Of a stretch of DNA of 64,000 nucleotides, positions 8,351-59,540 are shown in pieces (the first letter of the stretch is position 1; each line of letters starts with the position of its first letter). The notes below the pieces were generated by a model. It was not told where the DNA came from. It worked only from the letters and a program-made list of their open reading frames with translations, and did not search any database. The translations under genes and the position numbers were made by a program. The stretch comes from Carex sylvatica (taxonomy: Eukaryota; Streptophyta; Magnoliopsida; Poales; Cyperaceae). The DNA lies in contig CAXKVR010000138.1 in NCBI GenBank assembly GCA_964058845.1, forward strand, positions 372,001 through 436,000, given 5' to 3'.

Positions 8351-8766
8351 GAGAGTGACTAATATACTTTCGGAAGTATATGGACCAAAGTGCTTACAGT
8401 CCAAATTTGAAATTTCAAAACTCAAAAAGTCGATCGGAACCGTTCATTTTGTTCTCCATATTAATATGTGTTTGGAGACCAAATTTTATATTTTTCTGAA
8501 TTTGTTTATTATTTATTAAATCACTTTGAAAATCGTTGATCCAACGATTTTACTGTTTGGTTAAATCACTGTTGGATCAGCGATTTTCAAAGTGATTTAA
8601 TAAATAGTAAAAAAAATTCAGAAAAATGTAAAATTTGGTCTCCAAGAACATATTAATATGGAGAACAAGATGAACGGTTCTGATCGACTTTTTGAGTTTT
8701 GAAATTTCAAATTTGGACCGTAAGTACTTCGGTTCATATGCTTCCGAAAGCATATTAGTCTCTCTC
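8351..8766. mobile_element. fold-back MITE, type B ends (GAGAGTGACTAATAT)
   Basis: The whole 416-bp segment is a nearly complete palindrome. It opens with GAGAGTGACTAATATACTTT and closes with its near-complement ending TTAGTCTCTCTC. The inner arms contain AACCGTTCATTTTGTTCTCC, TTGGAGACCAAATTTTATAT and ATCCAACGATTTT, shared with all family members listed below. It sits inside a (TA)n tract, so its target duplication cannot be resolved. Confidence 0.85.
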
Positions 8767-9233
8767 TATATATATATATTGCAAAAATACGCTTCTATTT
8801 GTATGTTTTTTTCAGAATAATTATAAAATATTTAAAGTTAATTTTTTTTGTCAAAATATACTTAATAGTCAAAATAATTATAAAATTATGTCCCATTCTA
8901 CTATTAAATATCTGTGCAAAAATAGAACTCCAAATGGATTTAGAATTTTACAAACTAAAACTGTCGGCAGACACAAGATGCTTGCATGTGTAAAATACCC
9001 TTCTCGGACAAGGCATCTGTATTTTTGAAATTACGCGTCAAACTGATGCTTTTCTTATATGAGCTCTTTTCTGTGGAAAGGCTTTTTTATTTCTCTGCTC
9101 CGGCTTTGTCTGTTTTCAATTTTGTAATCTGAACTATTTGGTCGCTTTCGTGTTTATTTAAGCTCTACTCGGTTTTTGCCTAATTAAGCACCCTCTCCGA
9201 AATATGCAACTCCCAATTTGTATTTTATAATAA
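8767..9233. other. intergenic DNA between two MITEs
   Basis: AT-rich sequence with no gene or repeat that I recognise. It ends in TTATAATAA, the target duplication of the next element. Confidence 0.35.
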
Positions 9234-9610
9234 GAGAGGGATCCAATTACATCATTTTTATGATAATACATTTTGACACTATATTTTTATAATTTTAAAA
9301 TTTAAACAGATAATCTGAACCGTTCAACATGATCTCTATATTAAAATGTACTTAGAGACCAATTTTTATATTTTTTAGAATTTTTTTAGTAATTATTAAG
9401 ATGTTGTACAAAATTGTTGTTTTTAGGCAATTTTGGACCATTGAAAAACAACAATTAATTTTTTTTTAAAATAAAAGTAATAAATTTTAAAAAATATAAA
9501 ATTTGATCTTCAAGTACATTTTAATATAGGCATCACGTTGAACGGTTCAGATTAACTATTTGAATTTTGAAATCGCAAAAATAACTTATAAAAATATGTG
9601 ATCCCTCCTC
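9234..9610. mobile_element. fold-back MITE, type C ends (GAGAGGGATCC), 9-bp TSD
   Basis: This palindromic element starts GAGAGGGATCCAATTACATC and ends GTGATCCCTCCTC. The core words AACCGTTCAACATGATC and AGAGACCAATTTTTATATTT, with their complements, place it in the shared-core family. It is flanked by perfect 9-bp direct repeats TTATAATAA at 9225-9233 and 9611-9619. A 9-bp duplication points to the Mutator superfamily. Confidence 0.85.
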
Positions 9611-9639
9611 TTATAATAATTCATTTTATAAATTAGTGA

Positions 9640-10000
9640 AGCTATTGTATACCATATGCATATTATCAACAGTCCGTGCCATAGACTCATATCTTACTTA
9701 AAGTTCAAACAGTTAATTCAAAACGTTGAACATTATCTTCGTATGAAACTGTACTTAAAAATCAAATTTTATATTTTTTTAAAATTTTTTATTATTTTTT
9801 AAATAAATAAAATATCTCTCGATTTGAAAATTTTGAACTTTCGAGAAAATTTTAAAATATTCAAAAGCAATGGTTTTCTATATATTTTAAAAAATAATAA
9901 TAATTAAAAAAAATGTAAAATATGATTTATAAGTACATTTAACGGTTCAAATTGACTGTTTAAGCTTAAAAAAATGAAATATAAATACATAAGATAAGTT
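9640..10000. repeat. degenerate fold-back MITE of the same core family
   Basis: Weaker arms contain AAATTTTATATTTTT and AACGGTTCAAATTGAC. The overall fold-back symmetry survives but the ends are eroded. A perfect 30-bp tandem duplication (ATATATTACC ... CTTATTTAT) follows at 10011-10040 and 10041-10070. Confidence 0.55.
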
Positions 10001-10259
10001 GACCCGTAATATATATTACCATAACTTCACTCTTATTTATATATATTACCATAACTTCACTCTTATTTATATAATATTTTTTTTTATAAAAGTTGCAGAC
10101 ACATCACTCAATTGTTTAATATCCTTACTTTTGTTATTCAAAAGTTCCAAATCACTAGATAGAAAGCTGGGTTCTTGAATCGTAAAAGAATGCTTGTCAA
10201 TATATTGTGTATTTCTTATTATCGAGATAGTATAAATTAAATATATATATATATATATA

Positions 10260-10680
10260 GAGGTTGGCTACTATGCTTATATAAGCATATTTCCACATAT
10301 GTTTATAACTTATTTTTGTGTTTTCAATGTCTAAATGGTCGATCTGAACCGTTAGATGTGATCTCTATATTGAAATGTGCTTGGAGACCAAATTTTACAT
10401 TTTTCTGAATTTGTTTTACTATTTATTAAGCTAATTTGAAAATCTCTGATCCAACGGTGGCATCTGATTTTATTGTTTTGTTAAGTCACGTTGGATCAAC
10501 AATTTTCAAAGTGGCTTCATAAATAGTAAAAAAATTCATAAAAATTTAAAATTTGGTCTCCAAGCACATATTAATATGGAGAACAAAATGAACGGTTCAG
10601 ATCGACCATTTGAACATTGAAAACACAAAAATGAGTTATAAGCATATGTGGAGATATGCTTATAGTAGCCAAACCCCCCC

Positions 10681-10682
<2 letters not shown>
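10260..10682. mobile_element. fold-back MITE, type A ends (GAGGTTGGCTACTATG)
   Basis: The 423-bp palindrome starts GAGGTTGGCTACTATGCTTA and ends near CATAG/TAGCC. The core includes AACCGTTAGATGTGATCTC on one arm and AACGGTTCAGATCGACC on the other, plus an asymmetric loop (ATTTTATTGTTTTGTTAAG). The two arms differ in the TGTGATCTCTATATTGAAAT versus TTAATATGGAGAACAAAAT variant, so one arm may have been replaced. It is inserted in a (TA)n tract. The right end runs into a C8 and (CT)n(TA)n microsatellite at about 10675-10726. Confidence 0.85.
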
Positions 10683-10726
<44 letters not shown>

Positions 10727-13700
10727 GATTATTGTGCAGTGTGCAATGTGCAGAAAAGTGTACTCTCTATCTATATCAATCCTTTGCGTTACCTCACCGT
10801 TTGACTGTAAATACGAATCATCCGATTATAATCGGAATGAATTCATCATGACCTCTTTCATACTTGTGCCAATATATAATAACTAACGGATCAGATTCAA
10901 AATCACATAATGAGGTAACTTGGGTGATATGAATTCCTCTCTCTTCATTTGGTACTTGTGTTCATTTATAAGTGGAGATGACAGCTTTTAAATTGTTCTG
11001 TATAACAAATGATAATAAATGGAACAATGGTTGTTAGATCCATCCCGATATAAGTAAAATTTCGGAGCTTCATTCTGATTCGAATTTGATATGACAAATC
11101 AAAGCAAAAAAAGATTACTCAATTATCCAGTCCAAGGAAGGAGAACAGCACAAGAAAACCTTCCGCTTTCCTTTCGGCGTTTCTAATTAAGATAATAGTA
11201 GGTTTACTGTTTGTTCAATTTTCCAAATAATTAAACAATCAGTAGAGATGTGTGCTTTTTAAGGAATAGAAAAAATAAATGATTACCTAACCAATATGTA
11301 TATATTTGTACTTCATTCCCGATATAGGAGCCTAAGTAGATCTTCCTTTAAGAGAAGCGATTACATGCATAGTATTGTCTAAATATATATAGCATCGCTT
11401 GCACACAAAACATTAATTAGATCAGAATTGGTACTCTCGCGTGGTATAAATCCCATGATATTCATTCAATATACTTTCTCAAAATATATTAGAATATACA
11501 TAATATTAAAAAAAAAAAAAATCTCGTTTTAATATATTTTGAAAGAAAATAAAATATAAACTCCTTTTGTTAAACAAAAAAATAAAAATAATAAATATAT
11601 AAGCTTGAAACCGCAAGTTTACTCGAGAGATTTTGCTATAAGTCACATGACATGACTAGAGAATACGACAATGGTTCATAACTTCGTATATCTTTAATTT
11701 TCATGTCTACGGTCTACCTCAATTTTTTAGCAGAAGAATGTAGAACTAGTCAACTACTGTATGAAATTAAATTTATTTGAAAATTAAGTGCATATATTAT
11801 TTTGTGACACTCTGATTTTATTTCGGTGGATAATTAGAGTCTATAGATAGCAACTAATTAATGTGGACAACTTTTGAGTTATCAAAATGCCATTAAATTG
11901 ATCGTAGTTAACAATTTTATTTTACTGTTTATATTTTAGATAATTTATTAAGAATCGAAACATTAGAGCATAAAAAATAAGGGTATCTGAATCATTCTAT
12001 GGGAAAAATTCGACTCATATGATATAAATTTAATATAAAAAGACAGTTCGAGGTGATCACTGTGTTAAATAACCTGAAGCAGTTATAGAAGATACATGAG
12101 GTGATTAGGAAAACATAAGAAGTAATCATGTATAAAATATAAAGTTTCAATTATATGAAGTTAGTTTGAGATAATTAAACTAATTATTGAAAGTGATTAT
12201 GAAAAAAATCCGAGGCCATATGCTATATAAATATAAGTAAACAATCAATTTATGAAAATGTAGTTCTAGGCTTCTAGCTTACATCAATATTTTTATGGTA
12301 TTTGTACTTACTATCTCAAAAAAAATATTATTCTAAAGAAATTAAAATTGTGGATGTGTTTTCCATTATTAGATAATGCATATTAAATTTGAGTTATTTT
12401 TAATTAATTGGAACGTATATAAGAGAAGTCATTAACATACAAAGATTATTTTAAATTGTTTGATGAAAGCTAAATAGCTTTCAAATTGGTCTAAAATTGA
12501 GACACAAAGTTAGTTTGAGATAATTATAATTGTCAGTGAACAAATATTTGTTTATTTTTCTCAAAAGCGTGATTTGTGGAGCATTACACATGAACAATTT
12601 TTGTTTTTGTTCTGAAAATGACATGTATGCATTGTGTTTGTTAACTTAATTACAACATTCATGCTATGCCATCACCTTATGGATTACATATATTTTCACA
12701 ATCGTGGACTATCATTCTTCCATTTTTTTTTTTTTATAATGTGGCCATGTGGGTGCTGCGAAGCATTGTCCCTAGACTCTGTGTACATTTGGGAGATGTT
12801 AACAAGCGGGTGTTCTTTGATACTTGGCAGTCCTTTAAATTTTAGGATGAAACCTGGCATTCCTATAGTTCAAGAAAGAAACAAAAGATAACAAATACTG
12901 AGAAAGAAAACGGTCAACTGAATTCAAAGTCACAAGAAGAAGCCACACCACACCACACCAGCCTTAAACTGAACTCTCTCTCTCTCTCCTAATTTAATAC
13001 CTTGAATCATCTATTCCTTCAAGTCAAGGAAGACTGAAAGAGATATGAAACGGAACCTAAACATGTAATACTCTTTCTCCTGATTCTCTGTAGTCTCTAC
13101 AATGTTATTTAAATATACAATTAACCAATCTACATTTTTTTTTTTAATCTTTTTTCTTCTGGATTATAGCATGAGGAGACACTTCACACTTTTAACGAAG
13201 CATTTTGATTGTGTGTTTAAACTTTATAATTTAAATATTAAGATAATTATCACTTTATATGAATGCAGTTGCAGATAAGATTTATTAATTTGATTTTGAA
13301 AAAACTACACATAACTTCATTCATATTGTGGATTTAAATATTCTTTTACATTTTGGAAATGAACAAATACTTCTTTACATTTCTACAAAATTGCAAACAA
13401 ATTCTTTCATCTATTTTTTATGTTAAATACACGAAAACTTACCAGTTCATTTATTCTGTTACGTACCATGTCATCACATCTCATCACCAATTCTATGTAC
13501 CAAGTCATCACATCTCATCACCAATTCTATTTTTTTATTATCGCATTTAGTTGTCACATTATAGTAAATTTTGATGTTAAATTTGTTGATGCAATTACAA
13601 AATCGGACTTTCATATAAAAATATTTTAATGCAAAGTCATAATTTATATGACATGACACTTAAATAGGATATAATGTGGTACATCATCATCAACATCATT

Positions 13701-14424
13701 ATTATTTTAGAGCATGAATTAAGAGTTAAAATTTTAAATCATTTCTAGTGACAAGTGCAATAAAATTTTAATTTGCTACCTTCTATAAAGAAAGCAATTG
13801 TCTTAACCCTTGTCTTTATTAAATATGATAAGTGTGTACTGAAATGTAGAGAATATTTGAAATCATGATTAAAAATATATTCATATATATATATATATAA
13901 TGAGTTACTTACAAAAAGAATAAATATGTATATTATAAACTTATGTCATGCATGTCTGATGTTATTTAATCTCTTTGTTTTATTGTGAAACAATACCACT
14001 ATATATATATATTTGAACTTAAAAATCTCGGCCACAGAAACATAAAATAAATATAAATATTATTTTTGCAGTGCATTTATTTCTTACACTAAGTGAGAAC
14101 ATTTATTTTGCATAGATAGTGTGGTTTTCTCTCTCCATAAAACGCGGATGAAGCCACGCATTGGACTACAAAAATCTTTGTTGCAAACAATCCGAGCCTG
14201 TTATTTTGGCTTTCCATTAATTAAGTGAGCAGTTATTAAAGTACTTCTCTTTACTTCTCCCGGTTAATTTTTTCCATCTCCTCGCAACAATCATTACCAC
14301 AATTTTCCTTCTCAAACAACAAATTTCAATGACTTGCACCTCTAAATCTTCCCTAAAACGGTAGCAAAACCGACTACAAAAGCCCCTACATCTCTTCTCT
14401 TAAAACCCTTTCAAAACCCTTTTC

Positions 14425-14428
<4 letters not shown>
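10727..14428. other. long intergenic region upstream of the bHLH gene
   Basis: No gene is recognised in 3.7 kb. A perfect tandem duplication with a 34-bp unit (GTACCAAGTCATCACATCTC ...) lies at 13463-13496 and 13497-13530, with one mismatch. A short CACACCACACCA run and a (CT)n tract occur near 12947-12990. Short stretches resembling each other (GATGAAAGCTAAATAGCTTTC near 12465, and similar words near 32850) suggest old TE debris. Confidence 0.4.

Positions 14429-14480
<52 letters not shown>
14429..14480. repeat. (TA)26 microsatellite, 100 bp upstream of the bHLH start codon
   Basis: A perfect 52-base TA run sits between a pyrimidine-rich leader (TCTTCTCTTAAAACCC) and the bHLH start codon. 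It is likely in the promoter or 5' UTR. It resembles the sites occupied by fold-back MITEs elsewhere in the window but is empty here. Confidence 0.9.
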
Positions 14481-14483
<3 letters not shown>

Positions 14484-14583
14484 TACCTAGCTAGGAATAT
14501 TATTAATTATTCTCTGGTTTTTGCTTTATATATATTCTGAAGACTTATTTGTTTCTGTTTATCTTATCTTTTGTTTTCAGACA

Positions 14584-15956
14584 ATGTGGAACCCTACCGA
14601 ATTCAATCCTGCACCTTCCTCCTACATCAACTCAGACTATAGTGTGTATCGATCTATTATTTTCTTTTTAATTATTCTCTGATTTTATATAAATTTTGAT
14701 TGCGAGATTTTCTCTAAATGTAGTTGGTTTTTAAATGAATTTTGTGAAGGTACTTTCAATTCATTCACAGTCACAGGAGAAGGCAGCGAATCATCATCTC
14801 ACTTGCAGATTTCCAACGAGTATGACAAGCTGTGAGTCCCGGTGCTCTATTTTCCTTTATTTACTATTTTGCCCTCGTAAAGTAAATATTTTAGCAGTCT
14901 TTTCAAGGGTAGTTTGATAATTTTTGGGTTGATGGAACAGTTTCTTGGGCGACTGGTTTCTCAGTCCATACAGCAGCGAAAGCCATGTCAAGTCAGGAAT
15001 GGACTTCTCCAGTTCGTCTCTTCCCCTCTCGCCTTTTCCATTAGCATCCAACAGCAACCCTTACTCAGGTTCCATAAAAAAGTTATCTACTTTTTTATTT
15101 AATTGAAAGATTTTATGTATTTCACTTTTGCTGCGTTTTAACTTTTAACTATGTAATGTTGCTCCAATCAGATGTAGTTGGAGTAGGAGGAGATGTTTCG
15201 GTGGAAACTATGGGGGTGAGTAATGGAGATGTCCAGTTCAATGGCAGTCAAGCCGTTACTGTCACTGTGAGTCTGATTATTGCTATTTATGTACTTTCCT
15301 CATATTTTTCTTGTCTGTTCTCCGTAAAAGAAGGCTAGCATTTTCAAGCTTTTATATTTTGGACTCTCTTTTATGAATAAAATTTGAAACGATACCTAAC
15401 AGTCAAACAAGAACTGTAACGGGAAAAAGGTTAGCAGAACTTCAGATGAAACTTATGTGTGTTTGCAAGGTTGCTTCTCTTTGTATTTTGAATCCAAAAC
15501 AGGGTCTTTTTTCGTTTAGATCCCTAATTTCAAAGCACTTGTGAAGTTTAAGTACATATTTAAAGATCTGGAGTCCGAACAAAAATACTATAAATGAAAT
15601 CAGAGAACAAGAAATGAAAATAAAATTTCATTTAAACGCCGGATCATAAAAAACGTACATCCGTAGCATAGCTTCACGCTGTCAATTAAGTTTAGATTTA
15701 TACTCTATTTTTGTTGTGACTTTTTCTTTTTGAAGAAATTGTTCTGATTACTTTGATGGCATGATACGAAGGAATTGTTACGTGATACATGTATTTATTA
15801 ATTTTAGGAGTTGGAGAAGTTGGTTGAATCTGGGGAAGAAAAAAGCAGGGGAGAAAGCTCTTCAAGGGAGCCAAAGAAGCTCAAACCAAGCAGTGGTCAG
15901 AAACCGCTACAAGAAGGTTCCAGCTCAACAAAAAAGCAACCGGCAAAGGTTTCCAG

Positions 15957-15994
<38 letters not shown>

Positions 15995-31424: not shown

Positions 31425-31429
31425 CAAGA

Positions 31430-34231: not shown

Positions 34232-36365
34232 TGAAAGATATGTGTTTTGAAAGTTATCATTTTTGTAATGATTTATATATTATTCATGAGTTTGAATATT
34301 ATTATTATGTATTATTGTTCCTTGAGATTTATATGTTATATCTTTGAAAGTATTCAAGAAGATGCTCTTGGTCTTGAATCATAGAACTCCTAAGATTAGA
34401 AATATTTAATCACTAAATAAGTTCACAATCATGGTAATTAATGAGAAACATTAATTACCGAGGAAGATTGTCATGTTGATTAAAAAGTACATCGTAGTTC
34501 TATAAATGTTGATAAGGAATTATCGTTTAATGACATCAATATATAAAATGTGTATTTTATATATTGAACATGACCTAAATGAATGGAACATTATATGGAT
34601 TGTATTTTGTGTCATTAATGTTTTCATTGTGTCTTTAGAATCTTAGATATGAGTTGTATAGGTTTTTCACATGAGAAGTATATAATGTGATTGCTATTTA
34701 AATACTATCTTGTGATAGGAATAAAATAGTAATTCGTTGTGTATAACTTGTGCGGGAGAAATCTATATGTTAATATTATCATTGTCCCTCAATTTGAGTT
34801 ATGATATCACTGGGTCCCTTGATAAAGTGGAATTATATCGCATGCAATATAACTGATGTAGTTATAAGAGGTTGGCTACTATGCTTATAACTCATTTTTG
34901 TGTTTTCAATATCCAAATGGTCGATCGGAACCGTTCATCTTATTCTCCATATTAATATGTTCTTGGAGACCAAATTTTATATTTTTCTGAATTTGTTTAC
35001 TATTTATTAAGCCACTTTGAAAATTTCTGATCCAATGGTGGCTTAACAAAACAGTAAAATTAGAAGCCACCGTTGGATCAGAGATTTTCAAATTGGCTTA
35101 ATAAATAGTAAAAAAATTCATAAAAATGTAAAATTTGGTCTCCAAGAACATATTAATACGGAGAACAAGATGAACGGTTCCGATCGACCATTTGGATATT
35201 GAAAACACAAAAATGAGTTACAAGCATATGTGGGGATATGCTTATATAAGCATAGTAGCCAACCTCGTAGTTATAATTATAATTCATTTGAGAGACCAAA
35301 AAAATGAATATAATGCAAAAATAACACGATCCTATTTTGCATATTATTCATAATATCACGTGACAATGATAGACACAAAATTAGTGGATTGAGTAAATGA
35401 TTACTATGTCGTTTGGATAACTATAATGTAATGATAGAACCTCTTATAGTCAATAATATAAAGTTTTATATTATTGCCAAGATGACATAGATCCTCTATG
35501 CGGTTACACCAACTGAAGAGAAACAACAAGTATCTTACATTTCATAGTGATGTATAAGATAAAATACATGAGATGAAATGCTAAAATAAAATGTTATAAT
35601 ATGACATGCTTAGACCATAAATAAAGTTATGAAGTTATGCAAATATTATTTAGTATAATGTTTGAATTCATTATAAGAATAATATAAATATTGTATAATA
35701 GAATAATATGAATAATATTATTTGTTCATAAATTAATTTATTAAACCAATCACAAAATGAGATTAAAGAGAGCATAAAATGACAAAACAAGGCTAGTGGC
35801 ATGTGTGTAATTAATTTAAATATTACACAAATGGATTCCCTAGCCCTTGCCTATTAAAGGAGGTGTAATTAAGAAAAATAGAACTAATTTTTCTGCAAAA
35901 AAACGTAGCTAAACTCCTTGGCCGAAAGTTGAGAAGTTTGCTCTCTCATCTTCTCTTGTTAGGTTTAGCCACCAAGAAATCAAATAGTTTGTTGATTTGA
36001 AGATCAAGAGGTGATTGTATCTAAGCTTTGAACTCTACACCCATCTATCCAAGAGGTATGGTAGTTCATTGTTTAGGTTCAAGGTGAACCAAGAGGTGCT
36101 TCCAAGAGAACGGCGATTTCAAGAGATCTAGAAGGAAAATCGACTTTCCTCTAACAAGAGATTTGACAATCTCTTTAGGTATAAATTCTTATCTCATCTT
36201 ATGTGAGAAATAAATTTATTTAATTTTATTTGAAGCACATGAGATGCTAGAAGAATTTATTTAACGTAATATTGCTTGCAATTGTCATACAAATGAGATC
36301 CGTTGTGTATTGAATTAATTTTATTTTTATTTTTATCCTCTTGACATATACATGAAATCCCTACA
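34232..36365 (+). mobile_element. LTR-like element L1 (probable solo LTR), TSD AAAGA
   Basis: It starts TGAAAGATATGTG, ends AATCCCTACA, and is flanked by AAAGA at 34227-34231 and 36366-36370. Without its nested MITE it is about 1.72 kb. It is homologous to the pieces of L2, for example GTCATGTTGATTAAAAAGTA near 34469, AAGATGCTCTTGGTCTTGAA near 34358 and GAGATCTAGAAG near 36122. A TATTAAAGGAGG core-promoter-like sequence lies near 35850. There is no coding domain. Confidence 0.75.
34868..35266. mobile_element. fold-back MITE, type A ends, perfect 10-bp TSD
   Basis: The 399-bp palindrome runs from GAGGTTGGCTACTATG to CATAGTAGCCAACCTC. The target duplication GTAGTTATAA is perfect at 34858-34867 and 35267-35276. 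This copy, outside a TA microsatellite, fixes the family's true ends and duplication length. Its loop (AACAAAACAGTAAAATTAG) is inverted relative to the copy at 10.3 kb, so the two are inserted in opposite orientations. Confidence 0.92.
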
Positions 36366-40617: not shown

Positions 40618-40643
40618 AGGGGGTTCTTTCCCATTCAGGGGAG

Positions 40644-46267: not shown

Positions 46268-46970
46268 AGATAGTGTTTTCCTTATATTTGTGTGTGTTAT
46301 ATTTTGCATAAATAAATTACTTCTTAAAAATTCCAGAAATTTTTTTATAAATAAATTATTATAATGAGAAATGTTAAACAACATTGCTCCCAAAAAATTA
46401 TTTCTAAAAAAATACTTTTCTTCATAAATTATCTAGTTATTAAATGTAAGCTACAAATATTTGTTACATCAAATAAGATTTCAATTAAGAAGCATGAAAT
46501 TTATTTAGTTTTGATATTTTCAAACAGCTAAAAATAATGAAATTATTTATTAGAATTTACGATTAAAATAATTTAGAAAAATATGACACATACACATTCT
46601 GACTTTCATTTTTTTAAAAAGTATACCCACACAAAAATATAACACACACAAATATAAGGAAAACACTATCTGGATCGGTTCCTACCTCCAGAACCGATCC
46701 AGATAGTGTTTTCCTTATATTTGTGTGTGTTATATTTTGCATAAATAAATTACTTCTTAAAAATTCCAGAAATTTTTTTATAAATAAATTATTATAATGA
46801 GAAATGTTAAACAACATTGCTCCCTAAAAATTATTTCTAAAAAAATGCTTTTCTTCATAAATTATCTAGTTAAATGTAAGCTACAAATATTTGTTACATC
46901 AAATAAGATTTCAAGAAGAATGAAATTTATTTAGTTTTGATATTTTCAAACCACTAAAAATAAAAATCAA
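46268..46970. repeat. direct duplication inside the CACTA element
   Basis: A segment beginning GATAGTGTTTTCCTTATATT and running through TTACATCAAATAAGATTTC occurs at about 46268-46490 and again from 46702, a 434-bp offset, with few changes. A hairpin CACTATCTGGATCGGTTCC ... GGAACCGATCCAGATAGTG-like palindrome (about 46665-46710) sits at the junction. Confidence 0.8.
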
Positions 46971-47082: not shown

Positions 47083-47498
47083 GAGTATGGCTACCATTCA
47101 TTGCAATGCATAGGGACCTTTGTGCATTGGACTATAAATCACGGATTCAAAGTCCAAATTACCGATCCAAACCGTTTATCTTGTTCTCCATATTAATATG
47201 TGCTTGGAGACCAAATTTTATATTTTTTGGAATTTGTTTACTATTTATTAAGTCACTTTGAAAATCACTGATCCAACGGTGCCTTTTGATTTTACTGTAA
47301 CCGTTGGATCAGCGATTTTCAATGTGGCTTAATAAATAGTAAAAAAATTCGAAAAAATGTAAAATTTGGTCTCCAAGCATATATTAATATGGAGAACAAG
47401 ATGAACGGTTTCGATCGGTCATTTGGATTTTGAATATGGTGATTTATAGTCCAATGCATAGAGGTGCCTATGCATTGCAATGTATGATAGACTTACTC
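47083..47498. mobile_element. fold-back MITE, type D ends (GAGTATGGCTACCATTC), 9-bp TSD
   Basis: It starts GAGTATGGCTACCATTCATT and ends ATGATAGACTTACTC. The target duplication TAATATCAT is perfect at 47074-47082 and 47499-47507. The core (AACCGTTTATCTTGTTCTCC, TTGGAGACCAAATTTTATAT, ATCCAACGGTGCCTT) is that of the type A and B elements, but the outer 60 bases are unrelated to theirs. Confidence 0.9.
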
Positions 47499-48235
47499 TA
47501 ATATCATAACATATAAATTATATAAGTTATTTGTAAATTATTTATAAAATTATTTTAAAAAATAACATTCTAAATATTTAAAAATTATTTAAAAAATAAA
47601 AATAAAAATAAAAGAAAGCCCAAAACAGTCTTCATCTTTTGTGAAGCAACAACATAAGAAAAATATGAAAACATAAAAAAAAATGCATAAAACTAAGTAC
47701 TATATATCTAATAAGATTCCATCCTCCTCCTCTTCTCCAGACATTGGAGATGGAGGGTTGCCAGCTCCAAAACATAGCAACCTCCTTGAATCGGTCGAAC
47801 TTATTTTTTTTTTTTTTTTTTAAATGTATAAAATGTTGGTACGATAGGCATCAATTCATTAGCCACCTCCTTGAAGTACCTATTTTACTACTTGATTTTC
47901 TAAATTATGAAATTAAATGGATAATGCTAGCCATGTATATCGTTTAGATTATTGAGCATATTTATTGATATAACGAGAGAATCCGTTCAATAGTTGACTA
48001 CAATTTTTTTTTTACAAGTGTCTCCACTGCCATATAATAAGATTTTAGAGTAAGTCAATGGTACTATCAATATTAATACCTATCAATTGATACTCCAAAT
48101 TTATTTTTGAATTTTAAAATTCTTTATCAAATTGTCAAATTACCCTTCTTAGTGATAAAGTATCTTATACATTTTATCTCGCATGAGAAGGGAGGAGGAG
48201 GTGGTGGATCAGCTCGACCTTCATTTTGAAAAGGA

Positions 48236-48485
48236 AAAAAAAAAAAAAAAAACTATCTGGATCGGTTGTATCATAAATAACTGATCCAGATAGTTTTTTT
48301 TTTTTTTTTTTTAAAGTTGGTTCTGAAGGAAAAAAAAAAAAAAAAAAAAAAACTATCTGGATCGGTTATTTATGATACAACCGATCTAGAATTTTTTTTT
48401 TTTTTTTTTTAAAGTTGGTTCTGAAGGAAAAAAAAAAAAAAAAAAAAAAAAAACTATCTGGATCGGTTATTTATGATACAACCGA

Positions 48486-48523
<38 letters not shown>

Positions 48524-48790
48524 TTGGTTCTGAAGGAAAAAAAAAAAAAAAAAAAAACAATCTGGATCGGTTATTTATGATACAACCGATTCAGATAATA
48601 TTTTTTTTTTTTTTTTTTTTTTTTAAAGTTGGTTCTGAAGGAAAAAAAAAAAAAAAAAAAAAAACTATCTGGATCGGTTATTTATGATACAACCGATCCA
48701 GATTTTTTTTTTTTTTTTTTTTTTAAAAGTTGGTTCTGAAGGGAAAAAAAAAAACTATCTAGATCGGTTCATAATAGGAAACCGATCCTG
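48236..48790. repeat. tandem array of A/T-flanked hairpins in the CACTA element
   Basis: Five to six units of about 100 bp repeat head to tail. Each is a run of 15-25 A, then CTATCTGGATCGGTTATTTA, TGATACAACCGATCCAGA, a run of 15-25 T, and the spacer AAAGTTGGTTCTGAAGG. The A run, the inverted GGATCGGTT/AACCGATCC pair and the T run together can form one long hairpin per unit. Two further units, with a spacer in each orientation, lie at 49720-49930. Confidence 0.9.
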
Positions 48791-48796
48791 ATAACT

Positions 48797-49060
48797 CACT
48801 AGGGTTCTTATTTTCATTCCGCGCCTCTCATTTTCAACTTAGTGAAAATTAAACCTGTCTCTCAACTCCTCCGTCTCTCTCTCTGTCTCATTCCCTCCCT
48901 CTTCTAGGGTTCTTATTTTTATTTTGCATCTCTCATTTTCAACTTTGCAAAAATCAAATCCACCTCTTAACTCGTTCGTCTCTCTCTCTCTATCTCCGGC
49001 GTCTCTCAACTTAGCAATCTTTGTCTTTCTCTGTCTCGATCTAGTCAAAAAAAGGCGAAG
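48797..49060. repeat. duplicated leader-like sequence in the CACTA element
   Basis: CTAGGGTTCTTATTTTCATTCC ... CTCTCATTTTCAACTT and its near-copy CTAGGGTTCTTATTTTTATTTT ... CTCTCATTTTCAACTT form a tandem pair (about 48799-48903 and 48904-49010), rich in TCTCTC. It resembles a plant 5' UTR. Downstream, a short open stretch (MCHPFLPSSWNEMKDDVPPY at 49079-49138) could be a captured exon fragment; I do not recognise it. Confidence 0.5.
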
Positions 49061-49742
49061 AAGACGAAAACTGATAAGGATGTGCCATCCATTTCTTCCA
49101 AGTTCATGGAATGAGATGAAGGATGATGTCCCGCCTTATGCCCTTAAATTATACTTAAGGTACATACTATTTATTTCCTCAAATCTCTTATACACATTTG
49201 AGCATATTTTGTATTTTTAATTTACACTAAATTGCAGTATTAAAGTTTATGGTTTCAATTTTTTTTTTTTTCATTTGAGCAAGGTCTTTTGAGATTATTT
49301 AATCGGCGGTGAAGAGGTACACTTTGAGGTATGCTAGCTAGGTTTTTCTTGTCTTTCAATTTAAATAATACATGCATCGAAGATGCACAAGCAAGCAATT
49401 AATGATATAAATATTTGTTTATATTTTGAAGCTTGCACTGGAGGAGACGATAAAAGAGGGAGTGCCATACATGTGGCTAAATTTTATTTTGCTATTGCAC
49501 CAAATTTCTTCAACTATTGTACTTTTTTTTGTGTTTCATGAATTTTATTTTGTATTCTTAATTGATTTTGAGCTCCAATAAATCAATGGTAAATAAAAAA
49601 AAAATATTATGTTGGTCAGCAAATATATATGGAAGCTAGCCAAATAAAAAAAATATTTTTTTTTGATCCAATATAACATCAGGATCGGTTGTTTTGAAAC
49701 AACCGATCCAGATAGTTTTTTTTTTTCCCCCTTCAGAACCAA

Positions 49743-49783
<41 letters not shown>

Positions 49784-52700: not shown

Positions 52701-53420
52701 GTATAGTGGTTTCAAATTGAGTCATATTCATTAATTAGATGGCCTCTATGATTTTATAACTATCTTCCTTACTATTACCTAGTTGGATCTGATATACTTG
52801 GAATAGCTCATTAATTTGATCTACCGTTAAACGATGATAGGCAAAGCTAGTTATTAAAGAAATACCTTCTTTGTTGCCAGTTCCCAGTTCTTTGTCTCTA
52901 GCCCTTTTGATTGCTCTGCTCATTGTTGAATTAGGTCCAGTTTGCACTTGAACTCTCAGACTCTACCTCGACATAGTGGAGGTCGTGTCAGTCACCTCAG
53001 GGGTATTGACGGTGGCAAGTGTGCCAGTCTGTTCTGACGAATCAGAGATAACTACAGCTCCGTCGACAGTCTTGACCTTGGGAATTGAGCTACGAAGCCT
53101 CGCAGTTATCCCTTGTTTGACACCACTAGAAGTACCCATCTGGTTACAATAAGCCCAAGAATTCTGAGCTGCACTAGTCTTACGAGCACCAATTCTGATA
53201 GTTTTCTTCTTCAGCTTAGTTTGGCCAGTCTAAACAGTTTTTGTTGGGTTTGGCACCAGAATTTTCTTGCCCTTCCCGGAATCAGGGGTCTTAGTAATTT
53301 TTCCCAGAATCGGCTCTTTCTCTGACTCTATTGGGGCTCGGATAGGGGAATTGGGTCCAGAATGAGGTAATTTAGAGAGAAGGTAGAAGGAATTAGTGAG
53401 GAGAGGAGATGGGGGAGAGC

Positions 53421-54884
53421 TTACCAGTGTGACAGGTGAATTAAAGATAGAGGTCTTGGTCCGGGCACCACCCCCACCAGATTTTGTACCAGTAGATTTG
53501 GTACCAGTGCCCGAAACTCCTTTAGCTGGAATAGCGTGCTTTGGGGGGCCCTGAGAGCCGACCCAACTACTTTCTTCCCTGAACCAGAAGCACCATCATC
53601 TCCTTCATCCATTTTGTGAGCAATACCAGCGCCAGTACGACACCCAGCAGGAGGAGTTCCCCTACGAGGCATCGCAACATTCGATCCCTGCTGAGGCACT
53701 GTAACATTAGATCCCGTCTGATCACCATTGGTGACTGCGACTCCATTCATCTCTTCAGGTCCCCTATCACCCAGCATATCAGTGTCATCATCCAAACCTG
53801 CTCTATTCTCAGTCAAGGTTGACATGGTCTCCATGCTCGATTTATTGCCGAATTTCGTACCATTTGGATATGGCTGGCCATCCATGCGTCCCAGCCAAGC
53901 ATAAATATGCTTTGTGTTCTCATTTTTGATCTCAATATGTAGATCGAACACTCGAATCTTACCCGCCGGATTGAGATATTCAACATAGTGGATTGGTGGA
54001 ATGAGGTTAATATCATAGACCCCGAGTTTGAGACGAGCAAACCTCCAATCATAGCGTGACCCTGTACCCGGATCAATCTCCAGCAAGTGAGCTCCCATCG
54101 GATTGAAAACCCTGTCCACCTCCGACCACGACCATTGAAGTTTGGGGAATCCAGAGACACGCACCCACACCGGAATGAGATCCATCCCATCCTCAAAAGC
54201 GGGTTCCCAAGCAAGCATTGGAAATTCGACTCCTTGCAGAAGGAGAAATCCTTCAGCAGCTATAGAGTCTAGCCAAGACTTAGTGGGAGCCTTGATTAGG
54301 TATTGAAATTCAGCGTACACTGTCGCGACCCAGTGATGGCCAGCTCACTTGAACCGGGTATGGAGAGCTTTCTCAATCTTCTCGGGCCCCTAACCCGCAA
54401 TATCATCAAGAATAAAACTGAGCGCGAACTCACGTTCCAGTAGTTCTGATTCGGGGGTGGGAGTCAAAGTGATGATCGGAGTGCGAAGTGGAGCAGCCAT
54501 GGCTGTTGAGGGTTGAATCTGATTCGGAAGAGCTCGTTATCACCCCTTTTCCACAGATCTAGGTTTAGACAAGGGTTTATGCGGAGTAGAAGGGAAGTAT
54601 GAGGCAGTAGCACTGCACACCAGTGATTTATGCCCAAATTTGTTACAAATGAAGCATAGCTGCGCATTGAGACAATCACGAGACATGTGCCCAGGGGAGC
54701 CACATCTGAGGCAGATCGGGTGAGAACTGGTCGATCGGCGAATCAAGTCGCGTAGTTTGCGCTGAATCATCTCTGATTTGGATTCGTGCTGGATCACCCT
54801 ACCTGGTTGAGGTTTCGCTCGCCACGCTGTAGCAGGCTTGGAAATTACCTCTTTATAGCTACGAGGCCCAGATCGAAGCTCCAT
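53421..54884 (-). pseudogene. LINE ORF1 (CCHC knuckles plus DUF4283-like), broken
   Basis: From 54884 downward it reads MELRSGPRSYKEVISKP, a basic linker, and two CCHC knuckles (CLRCGSPGHMSRDC and CFICNKFGHKSLVC). After a frame change comes a DUF4283-like, RRM-like region (PVWVRVSGFPKLQWSW ... VFNPMGAHLLEID, from about 54200), then a disordered Gly/Asp/Thr-rich tail. ORF1 proteins of this kind bind LINE RNA. The knuckles precede the DUF4283-like part here. Frameshifts at about 54540 and 54330 inactivate it. Confidence 0.8.
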
Positions 54885-55142
54885 TAATGGAGGACGATTA
54901 GGCCCAAGAACTTGCCGCGCCTTAATTTTTTCTCGTATTCAATCCGACTGGAGCCGTATTACCTTCGACATTACTTCAATCTTTTGTTTTCTCTTTTTTC
55001 TCTTTTTTTTTTTTTGGATTTTTCGTTTGGTTTTTCGCAATCTAGAAAATCGCTTTTTTTGTCGCTTTAATCAAAAATGGTTTTGGCAAAGTTAAAATTT
55101 TTAATTTTACCACCTTAACGCATCTTGAAATCCTTCATTACC

Positions 55143-56055
55143 CTAATATTATTTTGATTGCAGCACAGACAATCATAATTAGGTAAATTTATTTTGCTTT
55201 ATATTGACTAATTTGTTAGCTTAGTGGATTACTTATTTCTGAAGGCATTACTGGGTGCTTAGCATTGAAAAGTCAAAGATATTTTGCCGAGAACAGCCTG
55301 TATACAAATTATTCAGCTAGCAATATGAAATAAGAAAAAAAATGAAACTAACTCTAATTTTCAACACCGTATAATATCGGAATATGCCCGAGTTAATTAT
55401 TAAAACATGTCAAAGAATACTTTCTGAACTCAGAACATTAATCAAATCAGATTTGCCAGTTTTGAATGCATTGTCAGTATATATAATCAGGAAATATCAT
55501 TTATATTGATTTAAGATGCCCAAAAGAAGGTTCCTTATAATTAAACTACTGACAAATATCCACGCAAATTTCGAGCCACGTACTGACCGTTTCTGCTGCC
55601 TGCTGGTTAATTAGTTGACTAATTTATTTAACAATTAGTATTAATTAATCAACTTCTTAATTAGCTCCACAATTTTTTAATAAGATTCCACAATTATGCC
55701 TCTTGGTCATTTGGTAGCAGCTGTTGGCTTGTAGGAGGCATTAACAGACAAGAACCTTCTCAGGAATCCAAGAACCGCTATATTTTTTCAATAGAGCACA
55801 GAAAAGATAAGTTCTAAATTGCTAATCGATAAGATCCTTAACTTTTTTTTTTTAATCAAAAAGTCAATTGTCTACACCTAGTTACTATCTACTGGTTCAC
55901 TTACCCATTTCTTTTTGGTTTGTGTAATTGTTTAATTACCCATGCCATGGCCAATAATATAATATAGCATGTTACCCATATGCCATCAAGGCGACACATA
56001 TAAACAATGTCAAAATCCAACTCAAGATTATAATGGGAAACACTTTGAATTTATT
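55143..56055. other. intergenic DNA right of the TE nest
   Basis: No gene or clear repeat is recognised. It is AT-rich with several ATTAATTA words. Confidence 0.4.
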
Positions 56056-56186
56056 AGGTACTTTTCGCGAGGGCAGACACTTTTCACGACGGAACACCGT
56101 CATAAACATGTTTTTTCTATTAGTGACGATACTTTTCGCGACGGAGTACCGTCATAAATGTATTTTTTTTCTCGCGAAAAATACCT
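56056..56186. repeat. ~130-bp hairpin element with TTTTCGCGA repeats
   Basis: The termini AGGTACTTTTCGCGAG and CTCGCGAAAAATACCT are inverted. The inside has two copies of CGACGGA-TACCGTCATAAA type. TTTTCGCGACGG words occur in subterminal regions of plant DNA transposons. This is probably a deletion derivative or MITE. Confidence 0.6.
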
Positions 56187-56292
56187 ACTTTGTTGTTAGC
56201 CCGATCACCATACCAGATGCCCGGAAAAAAGAGGAAAATTACCCCAAGAACGCCATACCAGACTTTGTCCTATAACAACGGTATTATATATC

Positions 56293-56702
56293 GAGTAGAA
56301 CTAAGGTGTTCTTAAGTACACCAAGTCTCTTGGTGAACTCAAGTCTAAAATTCATCGAATCGGTCTCAATTGACGAATCTAAACCATTGAAACCTGCCTG
56401 TCTTACGAATGATGCGTCTACATGTAAACTTTTTTAATTTTAAAATTAATTTTGCATAGAGTCAAGTGGTCAAGAAATGTTAAAAAATGAATGCATTAAA
56501 TTAATTTATTAACCTTCTAATTTTGACCGCATGACTTCATACTAAATTAATTCGAATGTTTAAAATTTTCACATATAGATGCATCACTCGTAAGGTAGGT
56601 ATGTTTCAACAGTTTAGATTCGTCATTTGAAGCCGATTCGATAGATTTTAGACTTGAGTTCACCAAAGAACTTGGTGAACTTAGAATACCCTAGTTCTAC
56701 TC
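56293..56702. mobile_element. fold-back MITE, Q family, intact, 9-bp TSD with one mismatch
   Basis: It runs from GAGTAGAACTAAGGTGTTCT to CCCTAGTTCTACTC. Mirrored arms include CACCAAG...CTTGGTGAAC, CTACATGTAAACTTTT...AAAATTTTCACATATAG and AGTCAAGTGGTCAAGAAATG with CTTCTAATTTTGACCGCATG. The flanks TTATATATC and TTATTTATC (56284-56292 and 56703-56711) match at 8 of 9 positions. Confidence 0.75.
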
Positions 56703-56732
56703 TTATTTATCAATTATATATATATATATATA

Positions 56733-57157
56733 GAGGTTGGCTACTATGCTTATATAAGCATATCCCCACATATGCTTATAACTCATTTTTGTGCTTCCAA
56801 TGTCCAAATGGTCGATCTGAACTATTCATCATGTTCTCCATATTAATATGTGCTTAGAAACTAAATTTTACATTTTTTGAAATTTTTTTACTATTTATGA
56901 AGCCACTTTGAAAATCGCTGATCCAACGGTGGCTGCACAAAACAGTAAAATCAGCAGCCACTGTTGGATTAATAATTTTCAAAGTGGCTTAATAAATAGT
57001 AAAAAAATTCTGAAAAATGTAAAATTTAGTTTCCAAGCACATATTAATATGGAGAACAAGATGAACGGTTCAGATCGACCATTTGGACATTGGAAGCACA
57101 AAAATGAGTTATAAGCATATGTGGGGATATGCTTATATAAGCATAGTAGCCAACCTC
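56733..57157. mobile_element. fold-back MITE, type A ends
   Basis: It spans GAGGTTGGCTACTATGC to GCATAGTAGCCAACCTC in a (TA)n tract on both sides. The core has ATCCAACGGTGGCTGCACAA with loop AACAGTAAAATCAG and the mirrored arm. It is a close copy of the elements at 34868 and 57576. Confidence 0.92.
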
Positions 57158-57177
57158 TATATATATATATATATAGA

Positions 57178-57550
57178 GGAGGGATCCAATTACATCTTTT
57201 TTTGGTGACACCGAATTACACTATCAATTTTTAAAGTTTTCAAATTCGAAACAGTCGATCCAAACCGTTCAACATAATGGATATGTTAAAATGTGCTTGC
57301 AGACCAAATTTTATATTTTTGGAATTTTTTTACTATTTATTAAGTATTTAACAAAATCGCTATATTCAGACCATTAAATTTTTGTGTCCATTTTAATAAA
57401 TAGTAAAAAAATTCAGAAAAATATAAAATTTGATCTGCAAACACATTTTAACATATCCATCAAGTTGAACAGTTTGGATCGACTATTTGAACTTTGTAAA
57501 CATATGATGTAATTCGGTGTCACAAAAAAATAGTGTAATTGGATCCCTCC
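57178..57550. mobile_element. fold-back MITE, type C ends (GGAGGGATCC)
   Basis: It runs from GGAGGGATCCAATTACATC to TGTAATTGGATCCCTCC, flanked by (TA)n tracts shared with its two type A neighbours. The core keeps AACCGTTCAACATAATGG and CAGACCAAATTTTATATTT; the middle is shorter than in type A. Confidence 0.9.
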
Positions 57551-57575
57551 TTATATATATATATATATAGAGAGA

Positions 57576-58000
57576 GAGGTTGGCTACTATGCTTATATAA
57601 GCATATCCCCACATATGCTTATAACTCATTTTTGTGTTTCCAATGTCCAAATGGTCAATCTGAACCGTTAGATGTGATCTCTATAATGAAATGTGCTTGG
57701 AGATCAAATTTTATATTTTTCTGAATTTTTTTACTATTTATTAAGCCACTTTGAAAATCGCTAATTCAACGGTGGCTTAACAAAATAGTAAAATCAGAAG
57801 CCATCGTTGGATCAGCGATTTTCAAAGTGGCTTAATAAATAGTAAAAAAATTCAGAAAAATGTAAACTTTGGTCTCCAAGCACATTTCAATATAGAGATC
57901 ACATCTAACGGTTCTAATCGACCATTTGAACATTAAAAACATAAAAATGAGTGATAAGCATATGTGGAAATATACTTATATAAGCATAGTAGCCAACCTC
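57576..58000. mobile_element. fold-back MITE, type A ends
   Basis: It runs from GAGGTTGGCTACTATGC to CATAGTAGCCAACCTC within a (TA)n/(GA)n tract. Both arms carry the GTTAGATGTGATCTCTATA variant and its complement, the variant found on only one arm of the 10.3-kb copy. Confidence 0.92.
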
Positions 58001-59035
58001 TCTATATATATATATATATATATAGCAGCGTTCTAATGTAAAACAGTACCGGAGAGGTTCCCAAGTCTGTTTTCTTTGCATAACAGGATCATCCTTTTAA
58101 GTATCTCTTGCATTAATTCAAACATTAATAAATAAAACAAAGCATTTAAATAAAAATAAAATTAACTTGTGTACTTTACACAGAGATAGGAGTTGGTCCC
58201 CCCCTGTCTGTCCGAATGCGTATCTTCAGCATTAACTCAAAAGAGAATCTTTTGAGTTAGTGAATTTTAACCGTCTGATTTTAAACGGAGCTAACCGTTT
58301 GATTTTAAACGAAGCCAATTTAGCTCTACTTATATCTTAGAAGGGCTTTAATATTAGTGCAGATCTAGTTTACATGAATCTTAAAATAAATCAAATAGTC
58401 GAGATGAATTAACTCAAAAGATTCCCTTTTGAGTTAATGTGAGGATACGAATTACTGTCTGCCCCCATATAGCACAACTGAATCTCATTTTAGGCCTTAT
58501 TCACATTTTTTGTTTCCGATTCAAAATCTGGGATGGCGTTTTTGAAGTAATTTTTTTTTCGCAGACTAATATTATCTTAATTAAATTTCAGTCGAGCAAT
58601 TCGAATTCATTGCCTATTTAAACATAGAAGTCAAAAAACCTTTTTGAGATTCGTATCAAATTAAAACATACCACTCAGATTAAATTGTACTCTAGATAAT
58701 TGCACTAAATACGAATCCGTAAACATCACTGGATCTACTTTTCTTTTTACAAAAGAGGCAAGGAATATACCAATTTTTATCTAAAAAAAAAAAGAGAGAA
58801 ACCAATCAACCCTTATGAAAAAAAGTTTTATTCTTACTCATATTTTCAAATACATTACATATCGGGTAAAATGATTAAGAGATGCTAATAACAACCCATA
58901 AATCGGTAAAACATTTTTCAAAGAAATTAAAACGAAGAAAAAATAAATAATAAAAACAACTAATTTATATTATGAAAATTTAGTAAAATCCAAACTTAAC
59001 AAATATCATGTATTATCTCGATATATATATATATA
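58001..59035. other. intergenic DNA holding one more fold-back element
   Basis: Apart from the element at 58214-58454 no gene or RNA is recognised. Confidence 0.4.
58214..58454. repeat. ~240-bp fold-back MITE with ~40-bp inverted termini
   Basis: CGTATCTTCAGCATTAACTC followed by AAAAGAGAATCTTTTGAGTT is mirrored by AACTCAAAAGATTCCC and GAGTTAATGTGAGGATACG. CTGTCTGTCC (58204-58213) and CTGTCTGCCC (58455-58464) flank it, a possible 10-bp target duplication with one mismatch. Confidence 0.65.
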
Positions 59036-59540
59036 GAGGTTGGCTACTATGCTTATATAAACATATCCCCACATATGCTTATAACTCATTTTTGTATTTT
59101 CAATGTCCAAATGGTCGATCGGAACCGTTCATCTTGTTCTCCATATTAATATGTTCTTGGAGACCAAATTTTACATTTTTCTGAATTATTTTACTATTTA
59201 TTAAGCCACTTTGAAAATCGCTGATCCAACGGTGGCTTCTGATTTTACTATTTTGTTAAGCCACCGTTGGATCAGTGACCGAAAAAAGTTTACTATTTTT
59301 TTAGAATTTTTAAAAATCATCACTTTGCTGAATTTTTTATTATTGTTTAGTTTAATCAAAAATTCAAAAAAAATAGTAAAAAAAACTTAAAAAAATGTAA
59401 AATTTGGTCTCCAAGCACATTTTAATATGAAATACACGTTGAAAAGTTCGAATCAACTATTTAAACTTTGAAAATGAAGATATGAGGGGAGGATGTACGT
59501 TAAGAGCACAAAAAGAGAGTGCATTTTAACACCACCTCTC
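59036..59540. mobile_element. chimeric fold-back element: type A left half, different right half
   Basis: The left half is a type A arm (GAGGTTGGCTACTATGC ... CACCGTTGGATCAGTGA). After about 59280 the symmetry is lost. The right half has the core AATTTGGTCTCCAAGCACAT but ends GCATTTTAACACCACCTCTC, unlike any type A end. (TA)n flanks both sides. Confidence 0.75.

What the first reader, a model, noticed from the sequence alone, without database searches (positions are those of the whole stretch)
8351..59540. A fold-back MITE family with one conserved core and at least four unrelated sets of outer ends
About ten elements (8351, 9234, 9640, 10260, 34868, 47083, 56733, 57178, 57576, 59036) share inner arms with AACCGTTC-type, TTGGAGACCAAATTTTATAT and ATCCAACGGTGGC words. 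Their outermost ~15-80 bases fall into types A (GAGGTTGGCTAC), B (GAGAGTGACTAA), C (GAGRGGGATCC) and D (GAGTATGGCTAC). Only the leading GA(G) is common. Since transposase recognises the ends, a conserved interior with changing ends is the reverse of the usual MITE pattern. Either ends have been exchanged repeatedly, or the core has a function of its own (hairpin RNA, replication, or enzyme binding).
Basis: partly seen in the sequence, partly recalled or inferred. Interest (0 to 1): 0.8.

Follow-up and report, generated by a model that had tools for sequence, protein, structure and literature searches.

The report
MITEs with borrowed, interchangeable transposon ends
A plant genome carries many short hairpin transposons that share one interior but wear different ends, and one of those ends matches the end of a longer, transposase-bearing transposon that lacks the shared interior, which suggests that the interior persists by being re-ended for different transposases.

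Summary
The ten elements are real: fold-back Mutator-type MITEs in a plant genome, mostly in (TA)n or (GA)n repeats, others with 9-10 bp target duplications. The shared core under different ends is confirmed, but four types is an undercount: I saw 19 end labels, ten of them in two or more elements. The ends are not structureless: after GAG most carry a type-specific word, its inverted copy and often a third copy further in, and these copies change together between types.

The core was not found in the related transposase-bearing elements. A 6.18-kb FAR1/MULE/SWIM (Jittery-like) element with a broken gene, C822, carries type C ends and no core. Searching the genome with its end gave 28 partial matches, all stopping at base 45-49; ten pairs span MITE-sized elements, and the five fetched all carry the core. 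A second MULE (C539) has the same end layout with its own word, also coreless.

Mosaics (A or B ends around a foreign 24-column core tract; a J end crossing into a B core) support exchange by recombination. Exchange is rare: end and core mostly travel together. A special core function is not needed. Core-sharing MITEs with different TIRs are known in corals: a new variant.

The parts
8351..8766 (.). type B element (GAGAGTGACTAATAT end), core arms 8427-8541 and 8575-8690
   Evidence: profile hits; ends read
9234..9610 (.). type C element; 9-bp TSD TTATAATAA at 9225-9233 and 9611-9619; core arms 9307-9414, 9466-9558
   Evidence: (TSD by eye); by eye the same end class as L092-L096, whose ends match the C822 MULE
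9634..10032 (.). degenerate type F element (GAGTGAAGTTATGGTA right end), weak core arms 9710-9803 and 9867-9958
   Evidence: E 1e-8 and 8e-4; limits approximate
10260..10682 (.). type A element whose left arm has the beta core cassette and right arm the alpha cassette; right end damaged and run into a (CT)n repeat
   Evidence: element 105; right limit approximate
34868..35266 (.). type A element with 10-bp TSD GTAGTTATAA (34858-34867, 35267-35276); left end lacks the stretch between the two direct word copies
   Evidence: (TSD by eye); hairpin
47083..47498 (.). type D element with 9-bp TSD TAATATCAT; three other copies at 100% in the genome
56733..57157 (.). type A element in (TA)n
   Evidence: best other copies 97% identical
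57176..57552 (.). type C element in (TA)n, 18 bp from its neighbour
57576..58000 (.). type A element, beta core cassette on both arms, in (TA)n
   Evidence: element 52
59036..59543 (.). chimera: type A left end with alpha core, type E right end with E-type core
   Evidence: element 108

Best explanation
These are non-autonomous Mutator-like MITEs (fold-back, mostly in TA microsatellites), mobilised in trans by FAR1/MULE/SWIM (Jittery-like) transposases. The outermost ~48 bp (GAG, a type-specific word, its inverted copy, and in many types a third copy near position 32-45) is the block that the transposase reads; this is inferred from layout and from the match with MULE ends. Each end type belongs to a different MULE lineage: shown for type C (C822), suggested for D/Q-like, M/E-like and H/I-like types. 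The interior (linker, core and loop, ~300 bp) is one inherited passenger that has been fitted with new end blocks several times, after which the new combination amplified. Ends were most likely exchanged by recombination or gene conversion between neighbouring copies, since the ends lie between shared (TA)n outside and shared linker/core inside. The mosaics are shown; the molecular route is inferred.
For: MULE-type element with type C ends and no core: inverted ends alike over at least 400 bp (one mismatch, one 3-base gap) at C822:11282 and 17464, around a gene whose pieces match FAR1, MULE and SWIM. The end used as query gives 31 places: 3 full-length and 28 that stop at base 45-49; ten opposite pairs span 404-426 bp; 5 of these 10 were fetched and all 5 carry the core on both arms. 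A second MULE, C539:32984-39246, has 212 bp of inverted ends at 94.8%, the dyad + third-copy layout and no core. Four MULE ends match MITE end types at 29-35 of 48 positions, 0 of 2000 shuffles each. Co-variation of word copies within end types: 0-5 of 20000 permutations. A-alpha and B: core distance 0.10 (within 0.051, 0.095), end distance 0.41 (within 0.060, 0.128). Mosaics: the A-beta cassette is 24/24 like type I and 15/24 like A-alpha, with flanks 18/18 and 34/34 like A-alpha; element 12 is J-like at 4 of 4 sites, then B-like at 15 of 16. All 8 elements with H or I ends carry H on one side and I on the other; the core cassettes of the two arms differ in 6, one arm is unassigned in 1, and they agree in 1.
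Against: No transposase-bearing partner was found for the commonest types A and B. Flanks of only 20 of 150 listed MULE places were read (305 candidates in the first look), 12 of them as upstream windows of 1.0-1.4 kb. Two of the four MULE matches rest on one end each (C60, C769). C822's duplication is imperfect, and both two-ended MULEs have stops in the coding region. End type and core mostly travel together (22 changes, least possible 18), and end and core distances correlate weakly, as plain descent predicts. Each swap is inferred from few events; B-beta is a single element. A-alpha and A-beta were separated by their core cassette, so their core distance (0.15, end 0.10) is partly by definition; the informative fact is the same end on both. 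The test of arm asymmetry was uninformative. Absence of the core from MULE ends rests on HMMs, local alignment and ungapped matrices of limited sensitivity; C822 reached 6 of 100 shuffles, and one block of C60 had p 0.014 (combined p 0.088 or more). No binding or transposition was measured.
Confidence: 0.66

Rival explanations
1. Plain divergence by descent: one MULE lineage split into many, the ends changed fast in step with each transposase, and the core changed slowly. No exchange.
For: Core tree and end labels agree well. End and core distances between types correlate weakly (Mantel rho 0.34, p 0.023). The shared layout and subtype gradients B-B2 and D-D2 look like descent.
Against: A-alpha and B cores are hardly more different than copies within type B, while their ends are far apart. 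The same A end sits on two cassettes, and recombinants exist. C822 has type C ends without linker or core, with a sharp boundary.
Confidence: 0.21
2. The core has its own function (a second protein-binding site, a small-RNA hairpin or a replication aid) and is kept by selection while ends drift.
For: Core columns 43-70 are 81% identical between types. Within types the end is a little more variable than the core in 11 of 12 groups. Very stable hairpin.
Against: That within-type ratio is at most 2.03, far from the contrast between types. The core was not detected in the MULE TIRs tested.
Confidence: 0.08
3. Ascertainment: the core only looks universal because elements were found through it; each MULE family has many unrelated MITEs and a few took up the same core.
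For: Searches used core-bearing queries. In one search, 17 of 410 end hits had no core beside them (some at locus edges), in loci that were mostly chosen for their core.
Against: A query without the core (C822 end) led to MITEs that carry the core in 5 of 5 fetched of 10 pairs.
Confidence: 0.05

Closest known systems
Coral CMITEs (PMC2872659; sections 10 and 15 and passages read)
   Same: MITE families with different TIRs and a conserved interior; only the outermost letters are common; limited similarity to an autonomous element near the TIR, none in the rest of the interior
   Different: piggyBac type, TTAA target, 75-bp interior, 13-14 bp TIRs; the paper leaves the interior's origin open and in the parts read reports no word-copy layout or exact end boundary (it does note one element with a family II-like interior)
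Microsatellite-targeting MULE MITEs: MuTAnT (PMC4486113, part 1 of 4 and passages), SaTar (PMC5907723, abstract, section 13, first part of section 16, passages), pineapple Ac-mMITE (PMC8449440, parts 1-2 and discussion)
   Same: short elements in (TA)n, 9-10 bp TSDs elsewhere, GA...TC ends (pineapple), adjacent non-nested clusters; MuTAnT is fold-back and has a Jittery-like autonomous partner
   Different: in the parts read, a common core under many end types is not described. Pineapple families are 510-570 and 210-270 bp, here nine of ten window elements are about 377-425 bp; no autonomous partner was found in pineapple
Galileo of Drosophila (PMC3573991, passages)
   Same: subfamilies with divergent TIRs, chimeric copies with two different TIRs, copies with TIRs of one subfamily and interior of another; sequence exchange proposed
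   Different: P superfamily, 7-bp TSD, long internally repetitive TIRs
Mutator of maize
   Same: long TIRs in which MURA binds a conserved ~32 bp motif (stated in PMC3310237, passage); GAG-type ends (recalled)
   Different: classical Mu elements share TIRs and differ inside (recalled), the reverse of this case

Membership tests
Mutator-like (MULE) MITE | 8-11 bp target site duplication | tested here: met
   Window: 10, 9 and 9 bp by eye in three elements. Of 95 elements (of 132) with both ends placed, 78 have TA/GA repeats on at least one side; of the other 17, nine show 8-11 bp duplications with at most one mismatch, small offsets allowed, several of them AT-rich
Mutator-like (MULE) MITE | TIR shared with a MULE transposase element | tested here: met
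   Type C with C822, whose gene is broken. Types A and B: no partner found among 20 MULE places read
Microsatellite-targeting MULE MITE (MuTAnT/SaTar/Ac-mMITE kind) | insertion in (TA)n | tested here: met
   78 of 95, TA or GA repeats on at least one side
Microsatellite-targeting MULE MITE (SaTar kind) | adjacent, never nested clusters | tested here: inconclusive
   Gaps of about 18, 21 and 27 bp between neighbours in the window, but element 99 has a TSD that reads as type A end sequence, so nesting may occur
Microsatellite-targeting MULE MITE (MuTAnT kind) | Jittery-like autonomous partner | tested here: inconclusive
   C822 (type C) has FAR1, MULE and SWIM domains but two in-frame stops; calling it Jittery-like is from recall. 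None found for A and B
Pineapple Ac-mMITE-1 or -2 | sequence identity with the published families | not testable with these tools
   Genome unnamed; the consensus sequences are in supplements not readable here
CMITE | TTAA target site, piggyBac ends | tested here: not met
   9-10 bp TSDs and GAG ends
Galileo/Foldback (P superfamily) | 7-bp TSD and P-type transposase | tested here: not met
   9-10 bp TSDs; MULE-type element with matching ends

The most novel reading that the evidence does not exclude
The interior is a 'hermit' replicator: one passenger that has outlived several transposase families by changing its terminal 48-bp recognition block, with ten recurring end types seen in one genome. 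TA-microsatellite insertion supplies the outer homology and the core the inner homology, so that the end becomes a swappable cassette. The end blocks are a natural series of re-written recognition sites (matched word copies in a fixed layout) for sister transposases.
Probability: 0.4. Interest if true: 0.7.

Novelty: new variant of a known kind. Interest (0 to 1): 0.55.

Why it matters
MITEs are commonly sorted into families by their terminal repeats and thought to depend on one transposase (recalled; PMC8449440 says that size, structure and TIR or TSD similarity to autonomous partners are used). Here the interior outlasts the ends, so sorting by TIR would split one lineage into many families. 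The boundary at 45-49 bp and the co-varying word copies point to the bases that Jittery-like transposases may read, which can be tested directly. It also offers a mechanism for the puzzle left open in coral CMITEs.

Tried and rejected
Partners of the commonest types: flanks of 20 MULE places were scanned (C35, C138, C78, C354, C518, C455, C822, C769 in windows of 4.0-7.0 kb, C822 later extended by 5.5 kb; C396, C60, C8, C66, C539, C256, C424, C80, C322, C309, C36, C217 as upstream windows of 1.0-1.4 kb). Four showed ends like a MITE type: C822 and C539 at both ends, C60 and C769 at one. The far ends of C60 and C769 were not found in 3.2 kb and 1.8 kb. The 665-, 717- and 900-aa MULEs showed no such ends of their own in the windows read; an H/I-type MITE with its own core lies beside the 665-aa gene.

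Core homology inside MULE TIRs: local alignment (6, 30, 34 and 70 of 100 shuffles as good for C822, C539, C769 and C60) and matrices (combined p 0.3, 0.11, 0.088, 0.82 for four core blocks). A resemblance of the start of the core (GAACCGTT) to MULE inner TIRs seen by eye did not survive this test.

Copying of one arm onto the other as the way both ends change: at one site 21 of 44 type A elements were discordant (18.7 expected), 13 of 19 type B (9.1 expected); undecided.

Literature: searches. One search (TIR exchange in MULEs) returned nothing; (end and core words) returned seven papers, off the subject by title and start of abstract. The library holds open-licence papers only, so 'not in print' is not claimed.

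Rows dropped before counts: 52 unpaired arms and 53, and elements with under 100 nt outside a core; 3 of 218 ends shorter than 100 nt; end groups with fewer than three ends and 8 unassigned A arms; 46 of 264 ends not anchored and types F and N; rows over 14 per label. Duplicates were removed only when identical over the element and 60 nt of flank on each side, so near copies such as the 1.76-kb tandem units on C315 may count twice.

After the one-time check I changed these points: identities, the H/I cassette count, the within-type ratio told in full, the partial circularity of A-alpha against A-beta, and two membership rows to inconclusive; confidence was lowered slightly for these.
Full report
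WHAT IS THERE. The window is part of an unnamed plant genome (G000, 64.0 Mb held in 950 contigs; 'plant' is my reading from the sequence and the matches). The ten elements named in the finding are present, each with two opposed core arms. Nine are about 377-425 bp by my limits; the tenth, 59036-59543, is 508 bp. The one folded (34868-35266) is a near-perfect hairpin, -274 kcal/mol against a mean of -75 for 100 shuffles. They begin GAG and end CTC or a decayed form of it. Three in the window have duplications read by eye: GTAGTTATAA (10 bp), TAATATCAT (9) and TTATAATAA (9). In a wider set, 78 of 95 elements with both ends placed (of 132) have TA or GA repeats on at least one side, and 9 of the other 17 have 8-11 bp duplications with at most one mismatch. 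This is the signature of Mutator-like MITEs that prefer microsatellites. The first look listed 2224-2904 candidate places per query, of which only 40 per search were scored.

END TYPES. I gathered 60 loci from two searches (some overlapping) and further stretches. One search paired 132 distinct elements, whose 264 ends fell into 37 clusters; I grouped these by hand into 19 labels, ten of which recur in two or more elements. Compared in one register, positions 13-48 are no more alike between labels than shuffled letters (26-29% against 25-26%), GAG is 84% alike, and core segments are 67-81% alike against 35-48%. With gaps allowed, type distances run from 0.18 (B-B2) to 0.72, with A-B at 0.41, against 0.645 (sd 0.16) for shuffled A-B ends.

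LAYOUT. Most ends read GAG, three or four letters, GGCTA or GACTA, then a type-specific word, its inverted copy and, about 20 nt on, a third direct copy: A TATGCTTA / TAAGCATA / TATGCTTA; B TGCTTTCG / AAGCATAT / TGCTTACG; D ATACATTG / CAATGCAT / ATGCATTG. Types C, M and E use mainly direct copies. Of 24 types listed, 17 have a direct copy matching at 6 or more of 8, and 17 an inverted one (mismatched pairs of types average 5.0-5.2). Across the 20 GGCTA-class types the first and third copies resemble each other more within an end than between ends (k=8: 6.05 against 5.24, 5 of 20000 permutations; k=9: 6.75 against 5.54, none). The inverted test agrees, but its windows overlap, so the non-overlapping direct test is the clean one. 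Types were listed by hand, and some are represented by one end only.

WHO OWNS THE ENDS. The Pfam MULE domain was found at 150 places scored of 305 candidates. I read flanks of 20. C822 is a 6183-bp element (C822:11282-17464) with inverted ends that agree over at least 400 bp but for one base and a 3-base gap, around a minus-strand gene whose pieces match FAR1, MULE and SWIM. The gene has two in-frame stops, and the flanking duplication is imperfect. Its outer ~48 bp are type C; neither linker nor core follows. The 400-bp end as query gave 31 places: three full-length (one of them a third end on the same contig), and 28 that all stop at base 45-49. Among the 28 are ten opposite pairs spanning 404-426 bp, one pair 4.6 kb apart, and six singles. 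I fetched five of the ten pairs: all five carry the core on both arms (10 of 10 arms). This query held no core, so it answers much of the worry that cores were found because cores were sought. C539:32984-39246 is a second MULE, in TA repeats, with 212 bp of inverted ends at 94.8%, the dyad plus third copy with its own word (GTACTTTGCAAAGC ... GTGCTTTGC), no core, and stops inside its MULE domain. C60 and C769 show one end each, like types H2/I and M. All four match some MITE end at 29-35 of 48 positions, which 0 of 2000 shuffles reach. No significant trace of the core was found in the four inner TIRs; the nearest to significance were C822 (6 of 100) and one block of C60 (p 0.014; combined over four MULEs 0.088).

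HOW END AND CORE ARE COMBINED. On a tree of 109 core arms (few columns, many forks unresolved) the end label changes 22 times, where 18 is the least possible and shuffling gives 81.5 on average. So combinations are mostly inherited. But there are clear exceptions. Types A (alpha cassette) and B differ by 0.10 in the core, with within-type values 0.051 and 0.095, yet by 0.41 in the end, with within-type values 0.060 and 0.128. The A end occurs with the alpha cassette in 79 arms and with beta in 19; B with alpha in 45 and beta in 2. A-alpha and A-beta differ by 0.15 in the core, partly by definition, and 0.10 in the end, the within-type level. The A-beta cassette (24 columns) is 24/24 identical to type I and 15/24 to A-alpha, while both flanks match A-alpha fully (18/18, 34/34). 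The one B-beta element shows the same patch (24/24 like I, 15/24 like B). Element 12 has a J end and is J-like at 4 of 4 diagnostic sites up to column 45, then B-like at 15 of 16 from column 63; its other end is type B. The window element at 59036 is A on the left and E on the right. All 8 elements with H or I ends carry H on one side and I on the other, so such a chimera can amplify. In the window, A-B and A-D interiors (83-89% identical) are nearly as similar as A-A interiors (86-91%).

MECHANISM. Shown: shared interior; many end blocks; one end block shared with a coreless MULE up to a sharp boundary; mosaics with breakpoints in the core. Inferred: the outer 48 bp is what the transposase reads; each end type marks a different MULE; ends are swapped by recombination or conversion between neighbours, because ends commonly lie between (TA)n and common linker/core; each successful swap founds a burst (best other copies of the query: D 100%, A 97%, B 92%, C 93% identical; best matches, not averages). 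The core need not have a function: within types the end/core ratio is 0.96-2.03, above 1 in 11 of 12 groups, so the core is at most modestly steadier.

AGAINST. No partner for A or B was found. Only four MULEs carried matching ends, two of them seen at one end only, and both two-ended copies are broken. Swaps rest on few events.

KNOWN AND NEW. Microsatellite-targeting MULE MITEs are known (PMC4486113, PMC5907723, PMC8449440; parts read). Chimeric copies and TIR exchange are known in Galileo (PMC3573991, passages). MITEs with different TIRs over one interior are known in coral piggyBac CMITEs, whose authors left the interior's origin open (PMC2872659, sections 10 and 15). I saw no description of the word-copy layout, of the 48-bp boundary with a coreless transposase element, or of end-swap recombinants in MULE MITEs in the listings or in the parts read; the library is open-licence papers only.

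Noticed in passing
L008:1422-1473: A 42-bp palindromic remnant made of a type B end joined directly to a type A end at the dyad, lying in (TA)n; the dyad itself may be a joining point (end 69R also looks I-like outside and H-like inside the dyad).
   Followed up: no
L085:551-684: A 134-bp type D mini-element with a perfect 10-bp duplication (GAAATTCTAG) and almost no core; its right end has the dyad but no third word copy.
   Followed up: partly
window 34868 and L039 (element 65): Type A left ends in two places lack exactly the stretch between the two direct word copies, as if recombined between them.
   Followed up: no
G000:C315:94034-108938 (L015, L021-L025, L027-L029): Type B element nine times, mostly at about 1.76-kb spacing: a tandem array of a larger unit (or an assembly artefact).
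   Followed up: no
window 46660-46740 and 48230-48500: Another hairpin repeat (ATCTGGATCGGTT... / ...AACCGATCCAGAT), in the second place several copies bounded by T/A runs; also beside one MITE (end 101R).
   Followed up: no
window 10010-10070: The right end of the 9640 element (ATATATATTACCATAACTTCACTCTTATTT) is duplicated in tandem.
   Followed up: no
L017:2348-2779: M-like ends on an element whose interior keeps only a much diverged core start (AACCGTTAGATATGATC), perhaps an older branch of the family.
   Followed up: no
C539, C60, C822 inner TIRs (about positions 57-82): The MULE ends seem to share their own inner block (like CRTTRRAT...AARATTCGTGC); seen by eye, not tested.
   Followed up: no
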